Assembly (NCBI RefSeq): GCF_002775205.1
Contig: NC_036453.1
Coordinates: 32,279,213-32,343,212 of the forward strand
Length of the DNA: 64,000 bases
DNA from: Xiphophorus maculatus
Taxonomy: Eukaryota; Chordata; Actinopteri; Cyprinodontiformes; Poeciliidae
Direction: 5' to 3'
Shown: positions 1-59,327 of the stretch, piece after piece
How the letters are laid out: each line of letters opens with the position of its first letter
Position numbering within the stretch: position 1 is the first letter of the stretch
Position numbers and translations under genes: made by a program
Notes under the pieces: generated by a model
Told to the model about the DNA's origin: nothing
Databases searched by the model: none
Seen by the model: the letters and a program-made list of their open reading frames with translations, nothing else

Positions 1-76
1 TCAGCTCCATATTGCAAGCTGCAATATCACAAAGTCATACTGAGGCAGAGCCCTTACAAAAAAATTCCATGAAAAT

Positions 77-177
77 CACATGTGATCACATGTGATTTTC
101 ATGTGATCACATAATCCACAAAAAAAAATCACATGTGATTCCCATTTCCCACATGTGGGTCATATTTTCCACATGTG
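77..177. repeat. Left cluster of palindromic CACATGTG octamers
   Basis: CACATGTG occurs at 77-84, 87-94, 130-137, 150-157 and 170-177, mostly flanked by T/A or C/G so that the palindrome extends to 10 bp. Partial copies (ATGTGATCACAT) lie between them. This subterminal position is where transposases of several DNA-transposon families bind. Confidence 0.9.
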
Positions 178-753
178 GTCAAGTATTTTGTTCATGTTTT
201 CAATGTTCCTTGTATCTTGTGATCACATAATTTTTTTAACATGTCAATATCATTTAATTGCCTGTCATACCCACATTTCTCAATATTTTTAAGTACTTGA
301 ATGTATTATAGTTATACATTTAAGATATATTTAATGAATGTACAACATATATATTCACATTTAATATTTTTAAATGTTATATGTCAACAATGGAATAAAT
401 CTGATACGTTAACACTCACACCCATCTGTAATGCAATTCAATTATTATTTTTTAAATAAATCAAGTGAAAATGTGTTTGTTGTGAGTTTTGCTGTTAACC
501 AATGTAATATGGTCAGTACCGCTTCCAATGGTATTTAGCTTATACTTATGTGCATACAATTAATCATTTTACTGACGTCTCAAATTCCTCATTACGTAAA
601 TCTCGCGCAAGTTTACGTAGAAAAGAAATCGTACCTGAGGCTGCAGCTTTTTTGTGGTAGCAGAACTAAAAAGAAAATATTTATGTTTTAATTAGGTGGG
701 TTAAAGAAAATAAGGTCAGTGTGGGCAGTGACACATTTGTGAAAAACAAAAAA

Positions 754-1057
754 ATGCTTTTCGACCTGAAGAGGATCGTCTGGGTGGATCATGGGGTCAT
801 TGGGAAGAAACCACCGAAGGATGGTTGGAAAGCCTTTCCGGCTCAGATTCTCAAAGTAAATGGTAAGAACATATTTTTAGTAATGTGTCCTTTTTCTCAC
901 TAAACACAAATGAATGAAATATATCACTTTTCTTGATTCTTATTCAATACTTGTACTGTTCTTTTGCTTTTATGTATACATATAACAGAAAGTCCCCAGG
1001 TCATTCGGGACGCTGAGAAACGCTGGATAGAAAACAAAAAAATCCGTCCACAAAATT

Positions 1058-1144
<87 letters not shown>

Positions 1145-3117
1145 TTTATGTTCGAAGATCATTGTTAACAGACTGACTGGTTAGTTCCCTCAGCTCTTAG
1201 TAGAGACGACTTAACGCTAGCTTAGCTGAAACAGGTGCTCGCGCTGCTGTTGAGCGACCGTTAACTCAGCAACAGCGCGAGCTCGGTTTTTTTTCTCTAA
1301 AGGGAGCGGGGGGGCAGGGGGGGAGCCCCACCCATCCTTACTCTTCGATCGAAGTTGAAATCTGCCTGATTTCACAAATGAAATAAACCAAGCACCGCGC
1401 ACTTCTGAGCTGCTTGTGTGTTTGTGTGTGTGTGTGTGTCAACGGTTCACTTGCGGGATTGGTTCACTCAGTTCACTAAGAAAAACATTTTGGTTCTGTG
1501 GAAATTATTATTAATATTTTTTAATTACTTTTAAAGGTAAACCTTACGTTTTTTCTGTTTTCTAATCAGGCTAATCAGCCTCAGGCCTCCAATAATTCAG
1601 AAGAAGACGACGACGCAGAGACAACCTGTGATCCTTCGGATCATGTAAGATGCAGGCAACACACATACGCAACACACATACATTCTTTTTTGTATATGCC
1701 ATATATATTATACATAGTGCACGCATACACATATACAAATAAGGAGCTTTATATATATATAAATTGTTCCCCTTGTTTGATAGTTGAGTCATACTAATAG
1801 TTTTTGTTCACAACATCAGACAGACGACAAATCTCAGATTACAGAGTTGGAGGATCACATTAAAAAGTTAGAGGAAATAATTGGAAAGAAGGATAAGGAA
1901 ATAAAGAGACTTCGAAAGGCAAATTTACTACTACAAGACGGTAAGTTCACAAATCTCTTACAAAATGGTTGCCAAATAACTTCTTATGTCTGATGTCTTA
2001 TATTGTGATTCAGGACTGTCAGACACAATATATAAAAGTGTCAAGGAAGCAGTCAAGGCTGTCCAGCAGTCATCCAGTTCTTCCAACCAATTAAAGAAGG
2101 AGAGGTATGTCTATGAGCTGGTGTTAGAAGTCATGTGAATAGTTTCAGATAAAAGACATGATATATTTTGGAGTTTATATAAAATTATTTTTTTATTTTT
2201 GCAGAGTGTCTTTGAAAAATCATACAGCAAACTCTATGGGACTTGACTACACTCAGCGGTACAGCGGTTTCAAAAAAATGACTAGAAACGTGATGGACTC
2301 CATCTTCACTCTTGAAGAAATGTCAACATGTTCAGTGACTGGAAAGAAAGGAATTCTTGGAAATAGAAAGAGAAGCTTTGACCAGGATAAAGTAAACCTT
2401 GTCATTGGTGAGTATACCTAAAAAGTAACTTGATTACTAACCACCACAACCCTCTATCCCTCATTCTAGAAAGCCTCATATATCAACACAAGCATTTGAG
2501 TTATGTCTTCAGCCAAAAAGTTACGCCTGCATTTTTAAATTATGTAGTTTTCCTGGGGTGTGAAACACAATAAATTTCACCATTATGTGAATCTCATGTA
2601 AATTAAATGATAAAAGCACATGTATGTGGGTGATTTTGTGGTTACAGATGTGAATCACACGTGTAGAAAATATGTGAATTACTAGTGATGAACATGTAAT
2701 ACACATGTCATCACAAGGGAATCACATAGGATTTCAACACACAACATTCTCAAATCACACATATTTTGCATGTGCTTTTTTAAAAACCCTTCATATGTGA
2801 AAATTTGTGTGAACCACATGTGCATTTTTCAGTTTGCAGTAAATTCATGTGAAATCCACAAATACATATTGATCAACTGATAAATACTTTTTTGCATTGA
2901 TTTATACAGACCAAATCAAGAAAGTGTTCAAGGATGTTGATGTCTCTTGACATCAAAGTTTGCATGGCACAAAAATTGAAGGACACCAGGAGACGCGCTG
3001 AGAGGTGACATTACATTAAGTTAAATGTAATGTAATTAGATTATTTGATACCTTCTGCTCAAGTAATCTTTGAATTTGTCTTTACACAGGCAGCCAGGGC
3101 AAAACGATGTACTGTAA
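754..3117 (+). CDS. Coiled-coil BEN-domain protein, apparent frameshift near the end
   Basis: Predicted exons: about 754-862 (ATG chosen at 754; an in-frame GTG lies upstream), 989-1062, 1570-1644, 1820-1940, 2014-2104, 2205-2407, 2910-3004 and 3090-3117. Phases agree from exon to exon and all introns are GT-AG. Exon 1 starts MLFDLKRIVWVDH and ends KVNG. Exon 4 is a charged heptad-like coiled coil (ITELEDHIKKLEEIIGKKDK). Exon 6 holds the start of a BEN domain (MDSIFTLEEMSTCSVTGKK). Exon 7 continues DQIKKVFKDVDVS and then meets TGA. In a neighbouring frame of the same exon the expected BEN ending is readable (MAQKLKDTRRRAER), and exon 8 closes it with a short tail. So the copy carries a one-base indel, or makes a protein with a truncated BEN domain. 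An AATAAA lies near 3263. BEN domains bind DNA and work in chromatin and transcription control; the function of this gene is unknown. Confidence 0.65.
1063..1143. repeat. (TA)n(TG)n microsatellite
   Basis: A long TA run passes into a TG run, starting at the splice donor (GTATAT) of the second BEN-gene exon. Length changes here would change the sequence around the donor. Confidence 0.95.
1237..1282. repeat. GC-rich hairpin in a BEN-gene intron
   Basis: Arms 1237-1254 and 1265-1282 pair over 18 positions with two central mismatches; the loop is 10 nt. The stem is much more GC-rich than its surroundings and is followed by a G-run and a pyrimidine stretch. Confidence 0.8.
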
Positions 3118-3433
3118 ACCAATAGTCAAGTCATCCTGTGGCTGGCTGATCACATTGCTGCAATTTGTGTGTTGAAATTGTTTGCTTTTCTTTATTCTTT
3201 GATCTTCCACAGAATGTTGCTCATTTAGATACGCAACATTCTGATTGTGAATAGCTTTAAAGAGGAATAAATAAATTAAATTTTTTTTTTGGTCAAATAT
3301 ATTTGTCTCACATGTCTTTATTCATAGCAAGTTTTTTGTAATTGTTTTGTAAACAAAATGAAATGACTTCATGTGAAAGATGCATTGAAATAATGAGAAT
3401 CACATGTATAAACATTTGTGATTTTTTTTAAAT

Positions 3434-3565
3434 CACATGTGCTCACATGTGAATCACATGTGGAAATGTGTGAATCACATGTGATTCACACCATTCACAT
3501 GTAAAAATTTGAATGAACCACATGTGTGGTTTTCATGTGATTTTCACATCACATTTTCACATGTG
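3434..3565. repeat. Right cluster of palindromic CACATGTG octamers
   Basis: CACATGTG occurs at 3434-3441, 3444-3451, 3455-3462, 3476-3483, 3519-3526 and 3558-3565, mirroring the left cluster. Looser CACAT/ATGTG words are also dense in the last large intron of the BEN gene (about 2560-2870), with one full octamer at 2815-2822. Confidence 0.9.
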
Positions 3566-3591
3566 ATTTTCATGGGATTTTTTTGTGAGGG

Positions 3592-3792
3592 TGTTCTCAA
3601 TTACAACTCTGTAAAAGTTTCTAAGCAGCTGGGGGTAGAGTTCAGCACTTTCCTGAAGAAGAAGAGTCTTTGTTGGTCCTTCTTCTCCAGAAAAGACATG
3701 TTGTGTGACCAAGACAGGTCAGAGGTGATGTGCATGCCCAAGAATTTTATGTTACACACAAACTCCTCCCTTTGATGAGGAGAGGTGAGCAA
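3592..3792 (-). pseudogene. LINE reverse-transcriptase remnant
   Basis: On the minus strand, CNIKFLGMHITSDLSWSHN followed by KKDQQRLFFFRK matches the conserved segment after the catalytic core of many fish non-LTR reverse transcriptases. The match then shifts frame to LLRNFYRVVIE, so this is a decayed fragment. It abuts the right end of the BEN element. Confidence 0.7.
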
Positions 3793-4085
3793 AGGCTGAA
3801 GTTAAAAAACTAAAACTGCATTGAGCAAGGATTAAATTATCAGCATTTGTTCAAGCTTCATCCCTTTCACTTCATCACAAAAAGGAAAATTGACCAATAC
3901 AACAAATGTTACAAAATCTGGATGTTTTAATATAACATTTTTCTTTAATTGGTCTTCTGTTCCATCGTTATTTGAAGCTGTGAACTCCAGACAATGAACC
4001 ATATGTTCTATTACTTTCCTACATATTTTCTCATTCTGTGTGAAGAGAATATAAATTATTTTTATATAAGCAATTGACATCTCTA

Positions 4086-15362: not shown

Positions 15363-18300
15363 CCATCCATCCATCCATCTTCTTCCGCTTATCCGAGGTC
15401 GGGTCGCGGGGGTAGCAGCTTCAGAAGGGAGGCCCAGACTTCCCTCTCCCCAGCCACTTCTTCTAGCTCTTCCGGGGGAATCCCGAGGCGTTCCCAGGCC
15501 AGCCGAGAGACATAGTCCCTCCAGCGTGTCCTGGGTCTTCCCCGGGGCCTCCTCCCGGTGGGACGTGCCCGGAACACCTCACCAGGGAGGCGTCCAGGAG
15601 GCATCCTGACCAGATGCCCGAGCCACCTCAACTGGCTCCTCTCGATGTGAAGGAGCAGCGGCTCTACTCTGAGTCCCTCCCGGATGACTGAGCTTCTCAC
15701 CCTATCTCTAAGGGAGAGCCCAGCCACCCTACGGAGAAAACCCATTTCGGCCGCTTGTATCCGCGATCTCGTTCTTTCGGTCATGACCCAAAGCTCATGA
15801 CCATAGATGAGGGTAGGAACGTAGATCGACCGGTAAATCGAGAGCTTCGCTTTTTGGCTCAGCTCTCTCTTCACCACGACGGACCGGTACAGCGCCCGCT
15901 TGACAGCAGACTCTGCGCCAATCCGCCTGTCGATCTCCCGCTCCCTTCTTCCCTCATTCGTGAACAAGATCCCGAGATACTTGAACTCCTCCACCTGGGG
16001 CAGGACACCCCCCTTGACCCGGAAAAGGCACTCTACCCTTTTCCGGCTCAAGACCATGGCCTCGGATTTGGAGGCACTGATCCCCATCCCGGCCGCTTCA
16101 CACTCGGCTGCGAACCACTCCAGCGAGAGCTGCAGATCATGACCTGATGAGGCCAGTAGGACCACATCGTCTGCAAAAAGCAGAGACGAGATCTTAAGGC
16201 CACCAAATCGGATCCCCTCAACACCTTGGCTGCACCTAGAAATTCTGTCCATGAAAGTAATGAACAGAATCGGTGACAAAGGGCAGCCCTGGCGGAGTCC
16301 AACTCTCACCGGAAACGAGCCCGACTTACTGCCGGCAATGCGGACCAGACTCTGACACCGGTCATACAGGGACCTGACAGCCCGTATCAAAGGACCCGGT
16401 ACCCCATACTCCCGGAGAACCCCCCACAGGGCTCCCCGAGGGACACGGTCGAACGCCATCTCCAAGTCCACAAAACACATGTAGACTGGTTGGGCGAACT
16501 CCCATGCACCCTCCAGGACCCTGCCGAGGGTGTAGAGTTGGTCCAGTGTTCCACGACTGGGACGAAAACCACACTGCTCTTCCTGGATCTGAGGTTCGAC
16601 TATCCGACGGACCCTCCTCTCCAGGACCCCTGAATAGACCTTGCCAGGGAGGCTTAAGAGTGTGACCCCTCTATAATTGGAGCACACCCTCTGGTCCCCC
16701 TTTTTGAACAGGGGGACCACCACCCCGGTCTGCCAGTCCAGGGGAACTGCCCCCGATGTCAATGCGATATTGCAGAGTCGCGTCAGCCAACACAACCCTA
16801 CAACATCCAGAGCCTTAAGGAACTCCGGGCGGATCTCATCCACCCCCGGAGCCTTGCCACCGAGGAGCTTCTCAACCACCTCGGCGACCTCGTCCCCAGA
16901 GATTGGAGAGCCCAACCCAGAGTCCCCAGGCTCAGCTTCTTCAATAGAAGGCATGTTGGTGGGATTGAGGAGGTCTTCGAAGTACTCTGCCCACCGGCCC
17001 ACAACGTCCCGAGTAGAGATCAGCAGCACACTATCCCCACTATAAACAGTGTTGGTGCCGTACTGCTTCCCCCCCCTGAGACGCCGGATGGTGGACCAGA
17101 ATCGCTTCGAAGCCGTATGGAAGTCTTTCTCCATGGCCTCTCCAAACTCCTCCCACGCCCGAGTTTTTGCCTCAGCAACCACCCGAGCCGCATGCCGCTT
17201 CGCCTGCCGGTACCCATCAGCTGCTTCCGGAGTCCCACAGGCCAAAAAGGCCCGGTAGGACTCTTTCTTCAGCCTGACGGCATCCCTCACCGAAGGTGTC
17301 CACCAACGGGTACGAGGGTTGCCGCCGCGACAGGCACCGACAACCTTGCGGCCACAGCTCCGACCAGCCGCCTCGACAATGGAGGCACGGAACACAGTCC
17401 ACTCAGACTCCATGTCCCCCACCTCCCCCGGGACGTGTTCAAAGTTTTGCCGGAGATGGGAGTTAAAGCTCCGTCTCACAGGGGATTCCGCCAGACGTTC
17501 CCAGCAGACCCTCACAACACGTTTGGGCCTGCCAGGTCTGACCGGCTTCCTCCCCCACCACCAGAGCCAACTCACCACCACATCCGATGAAACGACGACA
17601 AAGTCGATCATCGAACTGCGGCCTAGGGTGTCCTGGTGCCAAGTGCACATATGAACACCCTTATGCCTGAACATGGTGTTCGATATGGACAATCCATGAC
17701 GAGCACAGAAGTCCAACAACAGAACACCATTCGAGTTCAGATCGGGGGGGCTGTTCTTCCCAACCACGCCCCTCCAGGTCTCACTGTCATTGCCCACAAA
17801 GGCGTTGAAGTCCCCCAGTAGCACAAGGGAGTCCCCAGGAGGAGCACTCTCCAGTACCCCTTCTAAGGGCTCCAAAAAGGGTGGGTAATCTGAACTGTCG
17901 TTCGGCCTGTCAGCACAAACTACAGTCAGGACACGTCCCCCCACCCGTAGGCAGAGGGAGGCTACCCTCTCGTTCACCGGAGTAAACCCCAACGTACAGG
18001 GGCCGAGATGGGGAGCAACAAGTATGCCCACTCCTGCCCGACGCCTCTCACCTTGGGCAACTCCAGAGTGGAAGTATGTCCAGCCCCTCTCAAGGAGGCT
18101 GGTTCCAGAACCAGAGCCATGCGTCGAGGTGAGACCGACTATTTCTAGCCGGAACCTCTCGACCTCAAACACTAGCTCCGGCTCCTTCCCCACCAGAGAG
18201 GTGACATTCCACGTCCCAAGAGCCAGCTTCTGCAACCGAGGATCAGATCGCCAGGGTCCCCTCCCTCTGCCGCCACCCATCCCACAATGCACCCGACCCC

Positions 18301-18545
18301 TTTGGCCCCTCTCACAGGTGGTGGGCCCATGGGAGGGGGGACCCATGTTTCCTCTTCGGGCTGAGCCCGGCCGGGCTCCATGGGTTAAAGCCCGGCCACC
18401 AGACGCTCGCCATCGTGCCCCCCTTCCAGGCCTGGCTCCAGAGTGGGGCCCCGGTGACCCGCGTCCGGGCGAGGGAACGCCAAGTCCAATGTTTTTATCC
18501 ATCATTGGGGTCTTCGGAAGAAGACCCCAATGACGGATCTTCCCC
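15363..18545 (-). mobile_element. Rex3-like (RTE-clade) LINE insertion with target-site duplication
   Basis: The 14-bp sequence AAAACAGGAAGATG is present exactly at 15349-15362 and 18546-18559, bracketing the unit. On the minus strand the 3' end is a short (GATG)n tail (15363-15377), as described for the fish Rex3 family. The 5' end at 18545 lies a few bases upstream of a perfect hairpin. It was inserted into the 3' part of the older RNase H LINE in the opposite orientation. Confidence 0.92.
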
Positions 18546-18547
18546 AA
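15389..18547 (-). CDS. Rex3-like LINE polyprotein (endonuclease + reverse transcriptase)
   Basis: A single uninterrupted frame of 1052 codons. Residues 1-105 are Arg/Gly/Pro-rich. An apurinic-type endonuclease begins at about 110 (LGTWNVTSL), with LLGDFNAF near 245 and MIDFVVVSS near 314. The reverse transcriptase spans about 560-870 with GFRPSRGTLDQ, FVDLEMAFDRVPR, LRQGCPLSP and the catalytic FADDVVLL near 791. The C-terminus has the arginine-rich RGRPRTRWRDYVSRLAW segment common in these elements. After MIDFVVVSSD the frame goes straight to VVVSWLWWWGRK; the usual SDHH-type active-site segment of the nuclease is not there, which looks like a small in-frame deletion. The assigned ATG lies at the very edge of the insertion, so translation might start at a later ATG. 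It is a recent but perhaps nuclease-defective copy. Confidence 0.88.
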   Translation of the reverse strand: MGKIRHWGLLPKTPMMDKNIGLGVPSPGRGSPGPHSGARPGRGARWRASGGRALTHGARPGSARRGNMGPPSHGPTTCERGQRGRVHCGMGGGRGRGPWRSDPRLQKLALGTWNVTSLVGKEPELVFEVERFRLEIVGLTSTHGSGSGTSLLERGWTYFHSGVAQGERRRAGVGILVAPHLGPCTLGFTPVNERVASLCLRVGGRVLTVVCADRPNDSSDYPPFLEPLEGVLESAPPGDSLVLLGDFNAFVGNDSETWRGVVGKNSPPDLNSNGVLLLDFCARHGLSISNTMFRHKGVHMCTWHQDTLGRSSMIDFVVVSSDVVVSWLWWWGRKPVRPGRPKRVVRVCWERLAESPVRRSFNSHLRQNFEHVPGEVGDMESEWTVFRASIVEAAGRSCGRKVVGACRGGNPRTRWWTPSVRDAVRLKKESYRAFLACGTPEAADGYRQAKRHAARVVAEAKTRAWEEFGEAMEKDFHTASKRFWSTIRRLRGGKQYGTNTVYSGDSVLLISTRDVVGRWAEYFEDLLNPTNMPSIEEAEPGDSGLGSPISGDEVAEVVEKLLGGKAPGVDEIRPEFLKALDVVGLCWLTRLCNIALTSGAVPLDWQTGVVVPLFKKGDQRVCSNYRGVTLLSLPGKVYSGVLERRVRRIVEPQIQEEQCGFRPSRGTLDQLYTLGRVLEGAWEFAQPVYMCFVDLEMAFDRVPRGALWGVLREYGVPGPLIRAVRSLYDRCQSLVRIAGSKSGSFPVRVGLRQGCPLSPILFITFMDRISRCSQGVEGIRFGGLKISSLLFADDVVLLASSGHDLQLSLEWFAAECEAAGMGISASKSEAMVLSRKRVECLFRVKGGVLPQVEEFKYLGILFTNEGRREREIDRRIGAESAVKRALYRSVVVKRELSQKAKLSIYRSIYVPTLIYGHELWVMTERTRSRIQAAEMGFLRRVAGLSLRDRVRSSVIREGLRVEPLLLHIERSQLRWLGHLVRMPPGRLPGEVFRARPTGRRPRGRPRTRWRDYVSRLAWERLGIPPEELEEVAGEREVWASLLKLLPPRPDLG
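18503..18532. repeat. Perfect hairpin at the 5' end of the Rex3-like element
   Basis: Arms 18503-18515 and 18520-18532 are exact reverse complements (13 bp) around GGAA; the pairing extends further with one mismatch. On the element's own strand it lies within the first 45 nt. Confidence 0.9.
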
Positions 18548-19052
18548 AACAGGAAGATGGTTTTATAAAATTCAGAAGATTGAAGGAGAAAGAAGAAATG
18601 GAAGATGAAATAGAAAGGAGGAAAGAGTGATAACAAGGTTAAGATTTGGGCATACAGAACTTAATTATACACTTTTTAAAATTCGAAAGCATACTACTGG
18701 CAAATGTGATTACTGTGAAAAATAGAACATGTTATATTAGAATGTCATAAATATGAAAGAGAGAGAAGATATATGAGGAGAGAGTTTGAATATATTAAGA
18801 AAAAGGTTAATTTATTATATATTATGAGGAAGAATTCGGGGAGTAAACATACAAATAGTTATTCTATTTTTAAGAAAACTTCATAAAATTTCATAGAATT
18901 TGATGTTAGTAGGTGTGTTTGTGAATGTGTGTTTGATATAGATGGATTGAATACAAAGTTATGTATAAATATGTAGGGGTGTGTGTTGGTGTGTGTGCGT
19001 AGATAGTGTTAAAAAAGAGGTAATTTAACGTAATCATATTTCCTTAACAATA

Positions 19053-42644: not shown

Positions 42645-43082
<438 letters not shown>

Positions 43083-56688: not shown

Positions 56689-59327
<2,639 letters not shown>

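What the first reader, a model, noticed from the sequence alone, without database searches (positions are those of the whole stretch)
51..3591. Self-palindrome element: BEN-domain gene between CACATGTG-studded inverted ends
Seen: 35-bp inverted ends (33 matches), five and six copies of the palindromic octamer CACATGTG just inside them, and a single spliced BEN-domain gene with no transposase. Known: BEN proteins can bind short palindromes (Drosophila Insensitive: CCAATTGG; BANP: TCTCGCGAGA). Inference: the encoded BEN protein may bind the element's own subterminal octamers, so as to silence, bridge or help mobilise it. I know of no described fish transposon family of this layout.
Basis: partly seen in the sequence, partly recalled or inferred. 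Interest (0 to 1): 0.88.

Follow-up and report, generated by a model that had tools for sequence, protein, structure and literature searches.

The report
Fish transposon carrying a BEN-protein gene
A jumping-gene family in a platyfish-like genome carries, in place of an enzyme for jumping, a gene for a DNA-binding protein whose likely target, a short palindrome spaced in step with the DNA helix, is packed into the family's own ends.

Summary
In detail: 35-bp inverted ends (33/35; shuffle maximum 24), five and six CACATGTG beside them, one spliced BEN gene, no transposase recognised. It is a real mobile family. In the host genome (704 Mb, Xiphophorus-like) the 26-bp end occurs 95 times (control 0); 19 pairs face each other within 20 kb, 13 with perfect 2-bp target duplications (1.7 expected). 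The pairs are two BEN elements (3.5 kb), seven longer ones of another interior (six with decayed remnants of a DUF4806-type gene, without the domain itself) and ten miniature copies. In eight elements over 1 kb, 65 of 69 octamers lie within 260 bp of an end; spacings over 14 elements peak at 10.6 bp, one helical turn. Human NACC1's BEN domain binds ACATGT, the octamer core (published); its three critical arginines are kept in the C1 copy's protein, most other contacts are not.

Best explanation: a non-autonomous transposon whose BEN protein works like En/Spm TnpA or Harbinger ORF1, binding its own ends and cooperating with an unlinked transposase. Binding and transposase are unproven; the transposase search did not complete. 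The window copy is damaged (exon-7 frameshift, imperfect duplication); copies in frame there exist.

The parts
51..85 (+). left terminal inverted repeat (35 bp; outer 26 bp = family end CCCTYACAAAAAAATYCCATGAAAAT)
3557..3591 (-). right terminal inverted repeat
77..177 (.). left array: five CACATGTG, spacings 10, 43, 20, 20
3434..3565 (.). right array: six CACATGTG, spacings 10, 11, 21, 43, 39
2560..2900 (.). intron 6 stretch with degenerate copies of the motif (one octamer at 2815, four ACATGT); the C1 copy also has one octamer in its interior at a similar place
601..607 (+). TCTCGCG upstream of the gene (resembles the BANP motif; a label by resemblance only)
679..753 (+). N-terminal extension of exon 1, as read in the Megalobrama relative; its start codon is not kept in this copy
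754..862 (+). exon 1 from the second methionine
989..1062 (+). exon 2
1570..1644 (+). exon 3
1820..1940 (+). exon 4 (begins the predicted long helix, residues 87-146 of P0001)
2014..2104 (+). exon 5
2205..2407 (+). exon 6 (BEN domain, first part)
2910..3004 (+). exon 7 (BEN recognition helix); frameshifted in this copy, in frame in the 3 of 3 other fetched copies that hold it
3088..3114 (+). last short coding stretch (matches P0001 257-265)
3266..3275 (+). two overlapping AATAAA, polyadenylation-like, before the right array
   Evidence: read

Best explanation
This is one copy of a family of DNA transposons with terminal inverted repeats and 2-bp target duplications. The BEN type is about 3.5 kb and holds one spliced gene for a protein with a long predicted helix (coiled-coil-like) and a C-terminal BEN domain. 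The protein dimerises or oligomerises through the helix, binds the CATG core of the CACATGTG octamers that lie in helical register inside both ends, brings the two ends together, and there recruits or licenses a transposase made elsewhere in the genome. That is the division of labour of En/Spm TnpA with TnpD, or of PIF/Harbinger ORF1 with its transposase. SHOWN: the family, its ends, its target duplications, the octamer arrays and their spacing, the BEN gene and its relatives. INFERRED: binding to the octamer, oligomerisation, bridging, need for it in transposition, and the identity of the transposase (a PIF/Harbinger-ISL2EU-like enzyme is my first guess, from the 2-bp duplication and the report that ISL2EU is particularly present in platyfish).
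Against: No binding measured. Nearest solved BEN by sequence is BEND6 (E 0.0088), not NACC1; overall identity to NACC1 is 17%. Of 13 NACC1 residues reported to touch DNA, 5 are identical and 1 is a conservative change; D462, T465 and N466 are Q, K and D here, and one of the three arginines (R214) is Q or K in the two other fish. Among the younger copies dN/dS is near or above 1 (W-C1 1.93, W-C21 1.15, on 2 synonymous changes each; C1-C21 has none), so no constraint on the protein is seen after insertion; comparisons with the older C3:31.56 Mb copy over about 140 codons give 0.35-0.38, one stop codon dropped. The helical spacing could come from duplication of 10- or 20-bp units, and the elements are related, so spacings are not independent. 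The model is of modest confidence (mean pLDDT 65) and Foldseek gave no match at E 0.001 or better (best 0.013, BEND6). The DUF4806 domain itself was not found in the other gene-size elements, only the stretch before it. No transposase with these ends was found; the search for one did not complete.
Confidence: 0.46

Rival explanations
1. The BEN protein binds the arrays but acts as a repressor: it silences or insulates the element's own copies (copy-number control), as host BEN proteins recruit repressive chromatin. Mobility is independent of it.
For: NACC1 is reported to interact with corepressors (PMC11472053 introduction). The left array lies upstream of the gene, a good place for autoregulation. 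TnpA itself is both helper and suppressor (PMC2613891 passages).
Against: Both arrays, not only the promoter side, are kept, and the miniature copies whose octamers I listed keep octamers without a gene, which fits a cis requirement for transposition. Nothing tested here separates the two roles.
Confidence: 0.22
2. The BEN gene is passenger cargo: an ordinary gene caught between family ends, with no role. The arrays are bound by the transposase or by nothing.
For: dN/dS near or above 1 among young copies; the window copy is frameshifted. Few BEN copies (7 places) against 95 ends.
Against: Remnants of a second, DUF4806-type gene lie between the same ends in six other elements, though the domain itself was not found there. 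The motif of one known BEN domain is the array motif. Relatives in two other fish keep the recognition helix almost unchanged.
Confidence: 0.21
3. The arrays are bound by a host factor, for example fish NACC1 or NACC2, or a bHLH factor (CACATGTG contains an E-box, recalled), and the BEN gene is unrelated.
For: NACC1 and NACC2 are reported to recognise CATG-containing DNA (PMC11472053 introduction).
Against: Does not explain why the family carries a BEN gene. Could hold together with the best explanation.
Confidence: 0.11

Closest known systems
En/Spm (CACTA) transposons with TnpA
   Same: Element-encoded non-catalytic DNA-binding protein; short motif repeated in the subterminal regions; defective copies move if they keep the cis-acting sites (PMC2613891 passages).
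   Different: Ends are CCCT..AGGG, not CAC..GTG; the DNA-binding domain is BEN; no transposase exons recognised in the BEN copies; binding here is not shown.
PIF/Harbinger and ISL2EU (PHIS) transposons with a Myb-like ORF1
   Same: Two-protein division of labour (PMC2836001 passages); related elements make 0, 2 or 3-bp target duplications (PMC12730594 passages); [quoted passage not shown]
   Different: Helper is BEN, not Myb; no Harbinger-type transposase has been linked to these ends (search unanswered).
Miniature inverted-repeat elements (MITEs)
   Same: Ten of the 19 pairs are 73-417 bp, too short for such a gene.
   Different: The finding's element is a gene-carrying member of the same family.
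BEN-domain transcription factors (NACC1, BEND6, BANP, Drosophila Insensitive)
   Same: PF10523 above the curated cut-off; fold; C-terminal recognition helix; NACC1's motif ACATGT is the core of the octamer.
   Different: Encoded by a mobile element, with arrays of the putative target on the same element; no Pfam match other than BEN at its cut-off in P0001.

Membership tests
[quoted passage not shown]
   95 ends, 19 pairs within 20 kb, 57 ends unpaired at this threshold
[quoted passage not shown]
   2 bp, 13 of 19 pairs perfect, 4 with one mismatch, 2 with two; the window copy is one of the four
[quoted passage not shown]
   none recognised by eye among ORFs of the window copy (50 codons or more) or of C1:17977-21479 and the seven longer pairs (100 codons or more); no domain search of every ORF was made
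ISL2EU / PIF-Harbinger | DDE_Tnp_4-type transposase between these ends | not tested
   search with PF13359 did not complete (15 requests, listed in Tried and rejected)
ISL2EU / PIF-Harbinger | target duplication of 0, 2 or 3 bp | tested here: met
   2 bp; the range is from PMC12730594 (passages)
CACTA/EnSpm | termini CAC..GTG | tested here: not met
   ends are CCCTTACA..TGTAAGGG; CAC..GTG from PMC12730594
piggyBac | TTAA target (recalled) | tested here: not met
   duplications are AC, GT, TA, AT, CA, CG, TT, CC, CT
hAT | 8-bp target duplication | tested here: not met
   2 bp; usually 8 bp for hAT, PMC12730594
BEN-domain protein | PF10523 above curated cut-off | tested here: met
   28.0 (window), 25.3 (P0001), 37.1 (P0003) bits against 23.2
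BEN-domain protein | BEN fold | tested here: met
NACC1-type CATG binder | the three arginines whose loss nearly abolishes binding (R429, R468, R469) | tested here: met
   R214, R252, R253 of P0001; R214 is Q in P0002 and K in P0003
NACC1-type CATG binder | other base contacts D462 and T465 | tested here: not met
   Q246 and K249
NACC1-type CATG binder | measured preference for CATG DNA | not testable with these tools
   needs gel shift or SELEX

The most novel reading that the evidence does not exclude
A self-addressed transposon: a widespread teleost family of helper-only DNA elements, each encoding nothing but a BEN-type protein (BEN in one lineage, once DUF4806 in another) that recognises a palindromic octamer laid out at helical pitch inside the element's own ends. 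Part of the BEN-type domains of fish genomes would then be transposon end-binding proteins, and a source from which host BEN genes could be recruited.
Probability: 0.36. Interest if true: 0.85.

Novelty: new variant of a known kind. Interest (0 to 1): 0.7.

Why it matters
BEN domains are known as DNA-binding domains of chromatin factors and of viral proteins; a place as the helper protein of a DNA transposon did not come up in my searches. If right, it gives BEN-type proteins of fish a mobile home, supplies a natural protein-site pair (BEN with CACATGTG) testable by one gel shift, and offers a route by which vertebrate BEN transcription factors and their sites could spread together. It would also be a transposon family multiplied as a DNA-binding helper without a transposase of its own.

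Tried and rejected
Rejected: chance ends; two unrelated miniature elements flanking a host gene (the same 3.5-kb layout recurs at C1:17977-21479 with a 2-bp duplication AC); piggyBac, hAT and CACTA from ends or duplications. A 12-kb autonomous element suspected on C21 looks like a BEN copy split by a retrotransposon-like insert (ORFs read by eye). A Tigger/pogo-like ORF at the C1:6.88 Mb copy lies between its exons 1 and 2, so is taken as nested, not the partner (by eye). No match in phages or plasmids; by protein none confirmed in viral contigs (8 stretches) or GTDB genomes (50 stretches). The pattern scan of viral contigs gave 5 exact 16-mer hits that I did not follow and take as chance. Insertion of the window copy into the LINE-like relic on its right was considered from reading frames but could not be settled with 50 bp of left flank. 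Selection among the young copies: not supported.

So the domain itself was not found in those elements; I lowered the best explanation from 0.50 to 0.46 and the novel case from 0.40 to 0.36 for this, and raised cargo to 0.21 and host factor to 0.11.

Not done: search for the transposase. The genome search gave no answer (left-end DNA; right-end DNA; PF16064; PF13359). It answered only. Of the 57 ends left unpaired, many were not read beyond what fetched.

Full report
WHAT IS THERE. The window begins 50 bp before a 3541-bp element (51-3591). Its 35-bp ends match 33 of 35 in inverted orientation; shuffles reach at most 24. CACATGTG stands five times at 77-177 and six times at 3434-3565, once in intron 6, and once in the remaining 60 kb. 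Between lies a gene of seven clear exons and a short last coding stretch, with polyadenylation-like signals before the right array. The protein has a BEN domain. A model made from three sequences (mean pLDDT 65) predicts a 60-residue helix before it and a BEN fold; VIA-align puts BEN structures in the first nine rows, Foldseek ranks BEND6 first but at E 0.013.

IT IS A MOBILE FAMILY. The window lies in a 704.3-Mb genome, contig C11. The 26-bp end with up to three mismatches occurs 95 times, its reversed control never. 38 of the 95 ends form 19 facing pairs within 20 kb; 57 are unpaired at this threshold. Two pairs are BEN elements (window 3541 bp; C1 3503 bp). Seven (858-3091 bp) share another interior; ten are 73-417 bp. 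Two-base direct repeats flank 13 of 19 pairs perfectly, four more have one mismatch (the window among them, AG/TG), two have none in common by position, and the duplications vary in sequence. BEN exons are found at seven places; two further places (C19, C4) hold 5' parts of the element without, or with only a fragment of, the exons.

THE GENE AND ITS RELATIVES. Two searches of 5.8 billion proteins, limited to proteins that share short words with the query (559 and 9 candidates), gave three BEN proteins: P0001, Xiphophorus maculatus LOC111609629, which the C1 copy encodes in the matched exons apart from residues at exon joints; P0002, Micropterus dolomieu; and P0003, Megalobrama amblycephala, about 60% identical over the BEN part. 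So the host is probably X. maculatus or very near it (inference). The recognition-helix stretch is almost invariant in the three. The window copy is frameshifted in exon 7 and has lost the start codon of the longer N-terminus; the three other fetched copies that hold exon 7 are in frame there. The longer N-terminal start is seen in copies that are otherwise incomplete (C1:6.88 Mb, C3:31.56 Mb, C3:29.66 Mb), so no single copy was shown complete in all respects. Among young copies dN/dS is near or above 1, on very few synonymous changes; comparisons with the older C3:31.56 Mb copy over about 140 codons give 0.35-0.38, a stop codon dropped.

A SECOND GENE TYPE BETWEEN THE SAME ENDS. Six of the seven other gene-size pairs (L060-L064, L066) hold decayed stretches like the middle of DUF4806 proteins of other fish, about residues 134-242 of P0005 and P0006; four proteins match the best-kept exon (E 7e-11 to 1e-3). 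The DUF4806 domain begins at residue 165 of P0004 and 237 of P0005, so what is left in the elements lies before the domain, and the domain itself was not found. The seventh (L067) shares DNA with the six but showed no protein match. DUF4806 is called a subtype of the BEN domain in PMC11075544, citing Pan et al. 2023 (passages read; Pan et al. itself not held).

THE ARRAYS. CACATGTG occurs at 15.98 per kb in the subterminal parts of 12 elements and 0.38 per kb in the interiors of the nine longer ones; it is the commonest palindromic 8-mer there, the overlapping ACATGTGA being commoner still. In eight elements over 1 kb, 65 of 69 octamers lie within 260 bp of an end. Over 14 elements the 68 spacings of at most 90 bp peak at a period of 10.6 bp (mean cosine 0.65); ACATGT gives 10.7 over 116 spacings. 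The copies are related, so this is descriptive, and duplicated 10- or 20-bp units would give the same.

WHY BEN AND CACATGTG MAY BELONG TOGETHER. A better match exists: NACC1's BEN domain selects ACATGT (PMC7764960, abstract and sections 3.2 and 3.3 read), and its complex with CATG DNA is solved (PMC11472053, abstract, introduction, first of three parts of the results, and discussion read). R469A nearly abolishes binding, R468A and R429A leave under 5%. On the alignment these are R253, R252 and R214 of P0001 (NACC1 numbering counted from the residues the paper names). BEND6, nearer in sequence (30% against 17%), has none of the three as arginine. Against this: D462, T465, N466, R472 and R401 differ, R214 is not kept in the two other fish, and an arginine also stands where, on my alignment by eye, BANP has its CpG-reading R316, so CpG binding is not excluded.

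MECHANISM. I commit to a helper role like TnpA or Harbinger ORF1 (probability 0.46), over self-repression (0.22), cargo (0.21) and host-factor sites (0.11). Arrays on both sides, octamers kept in gene-less copies, and the BEN-type nature of the gene favour it; lack of a linked transposase and of constraint among young copies count against it. The superfamily is open: the 2-bp duplication is compatible with PHIS elements, and ISL2EU is reported as particularly present in platyfish (PMC9179366 passages), but the domain search did not complete.

NOVELTY. Non-autonomous transposons and element-encoded end-binding proteins are known kinds; a BEN-type helper with its probable palindromic target in phased arrays did not appear in my searches. 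I call it a new variant of a known kind.

Noticed in passing
Possibly a promoter element.
   Followed up: partly
2560-2900: A third, degenerate cluster of the motif in intron 6, with a 46-bp stretch 83% like one in the right array; the C1 copy also has an octamer in its interior.
   Followed up: partly
3592-3801: Minus-strand relic resembling the C-terminal part of a LINE reverse transcriptase directly outside the right end (recognised by eye).
   Followed up: partly
15392-18562: Open reading frame of 1057 codons, minus strand, with RVT_1 (E 5e-33) and weaker endonuclease matches: a LINE with an open frame.
   Followed up: partly
42645-43079 and 57621-58226: Histone H2A (PF16211, PF00125) and HSP70 (PF00012) reading frames; VPS11-like and HYOU1-like exons between about 25.6 and 34 kb recognised by eye only.
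   Followed up: partly
L057-L058 (about C21:1550333-1562600): BEN copy apparently split by a BEL/Pao-like retrotransposon; its ORFs were read by eye.
   Followed up: partly
L054 4239-4562: Tigger/pogo-like ORF between exons 1 and 2 of the C1:6.88 Mb BEN copy (by eye).
   Followed up: no
1063-1144: Long AT/GT microsatellite in intron 2, starting at the splice donor of exon 2.
   Followed up: no
P0006 (Maylandia zebra): This DUF4806-type cluster has 45 member sequences, suggesting multi-copy, perhaps transposon-borne, genes in cichlids; its own DUF4806 score is just under the cut-off.
   Followed up: no
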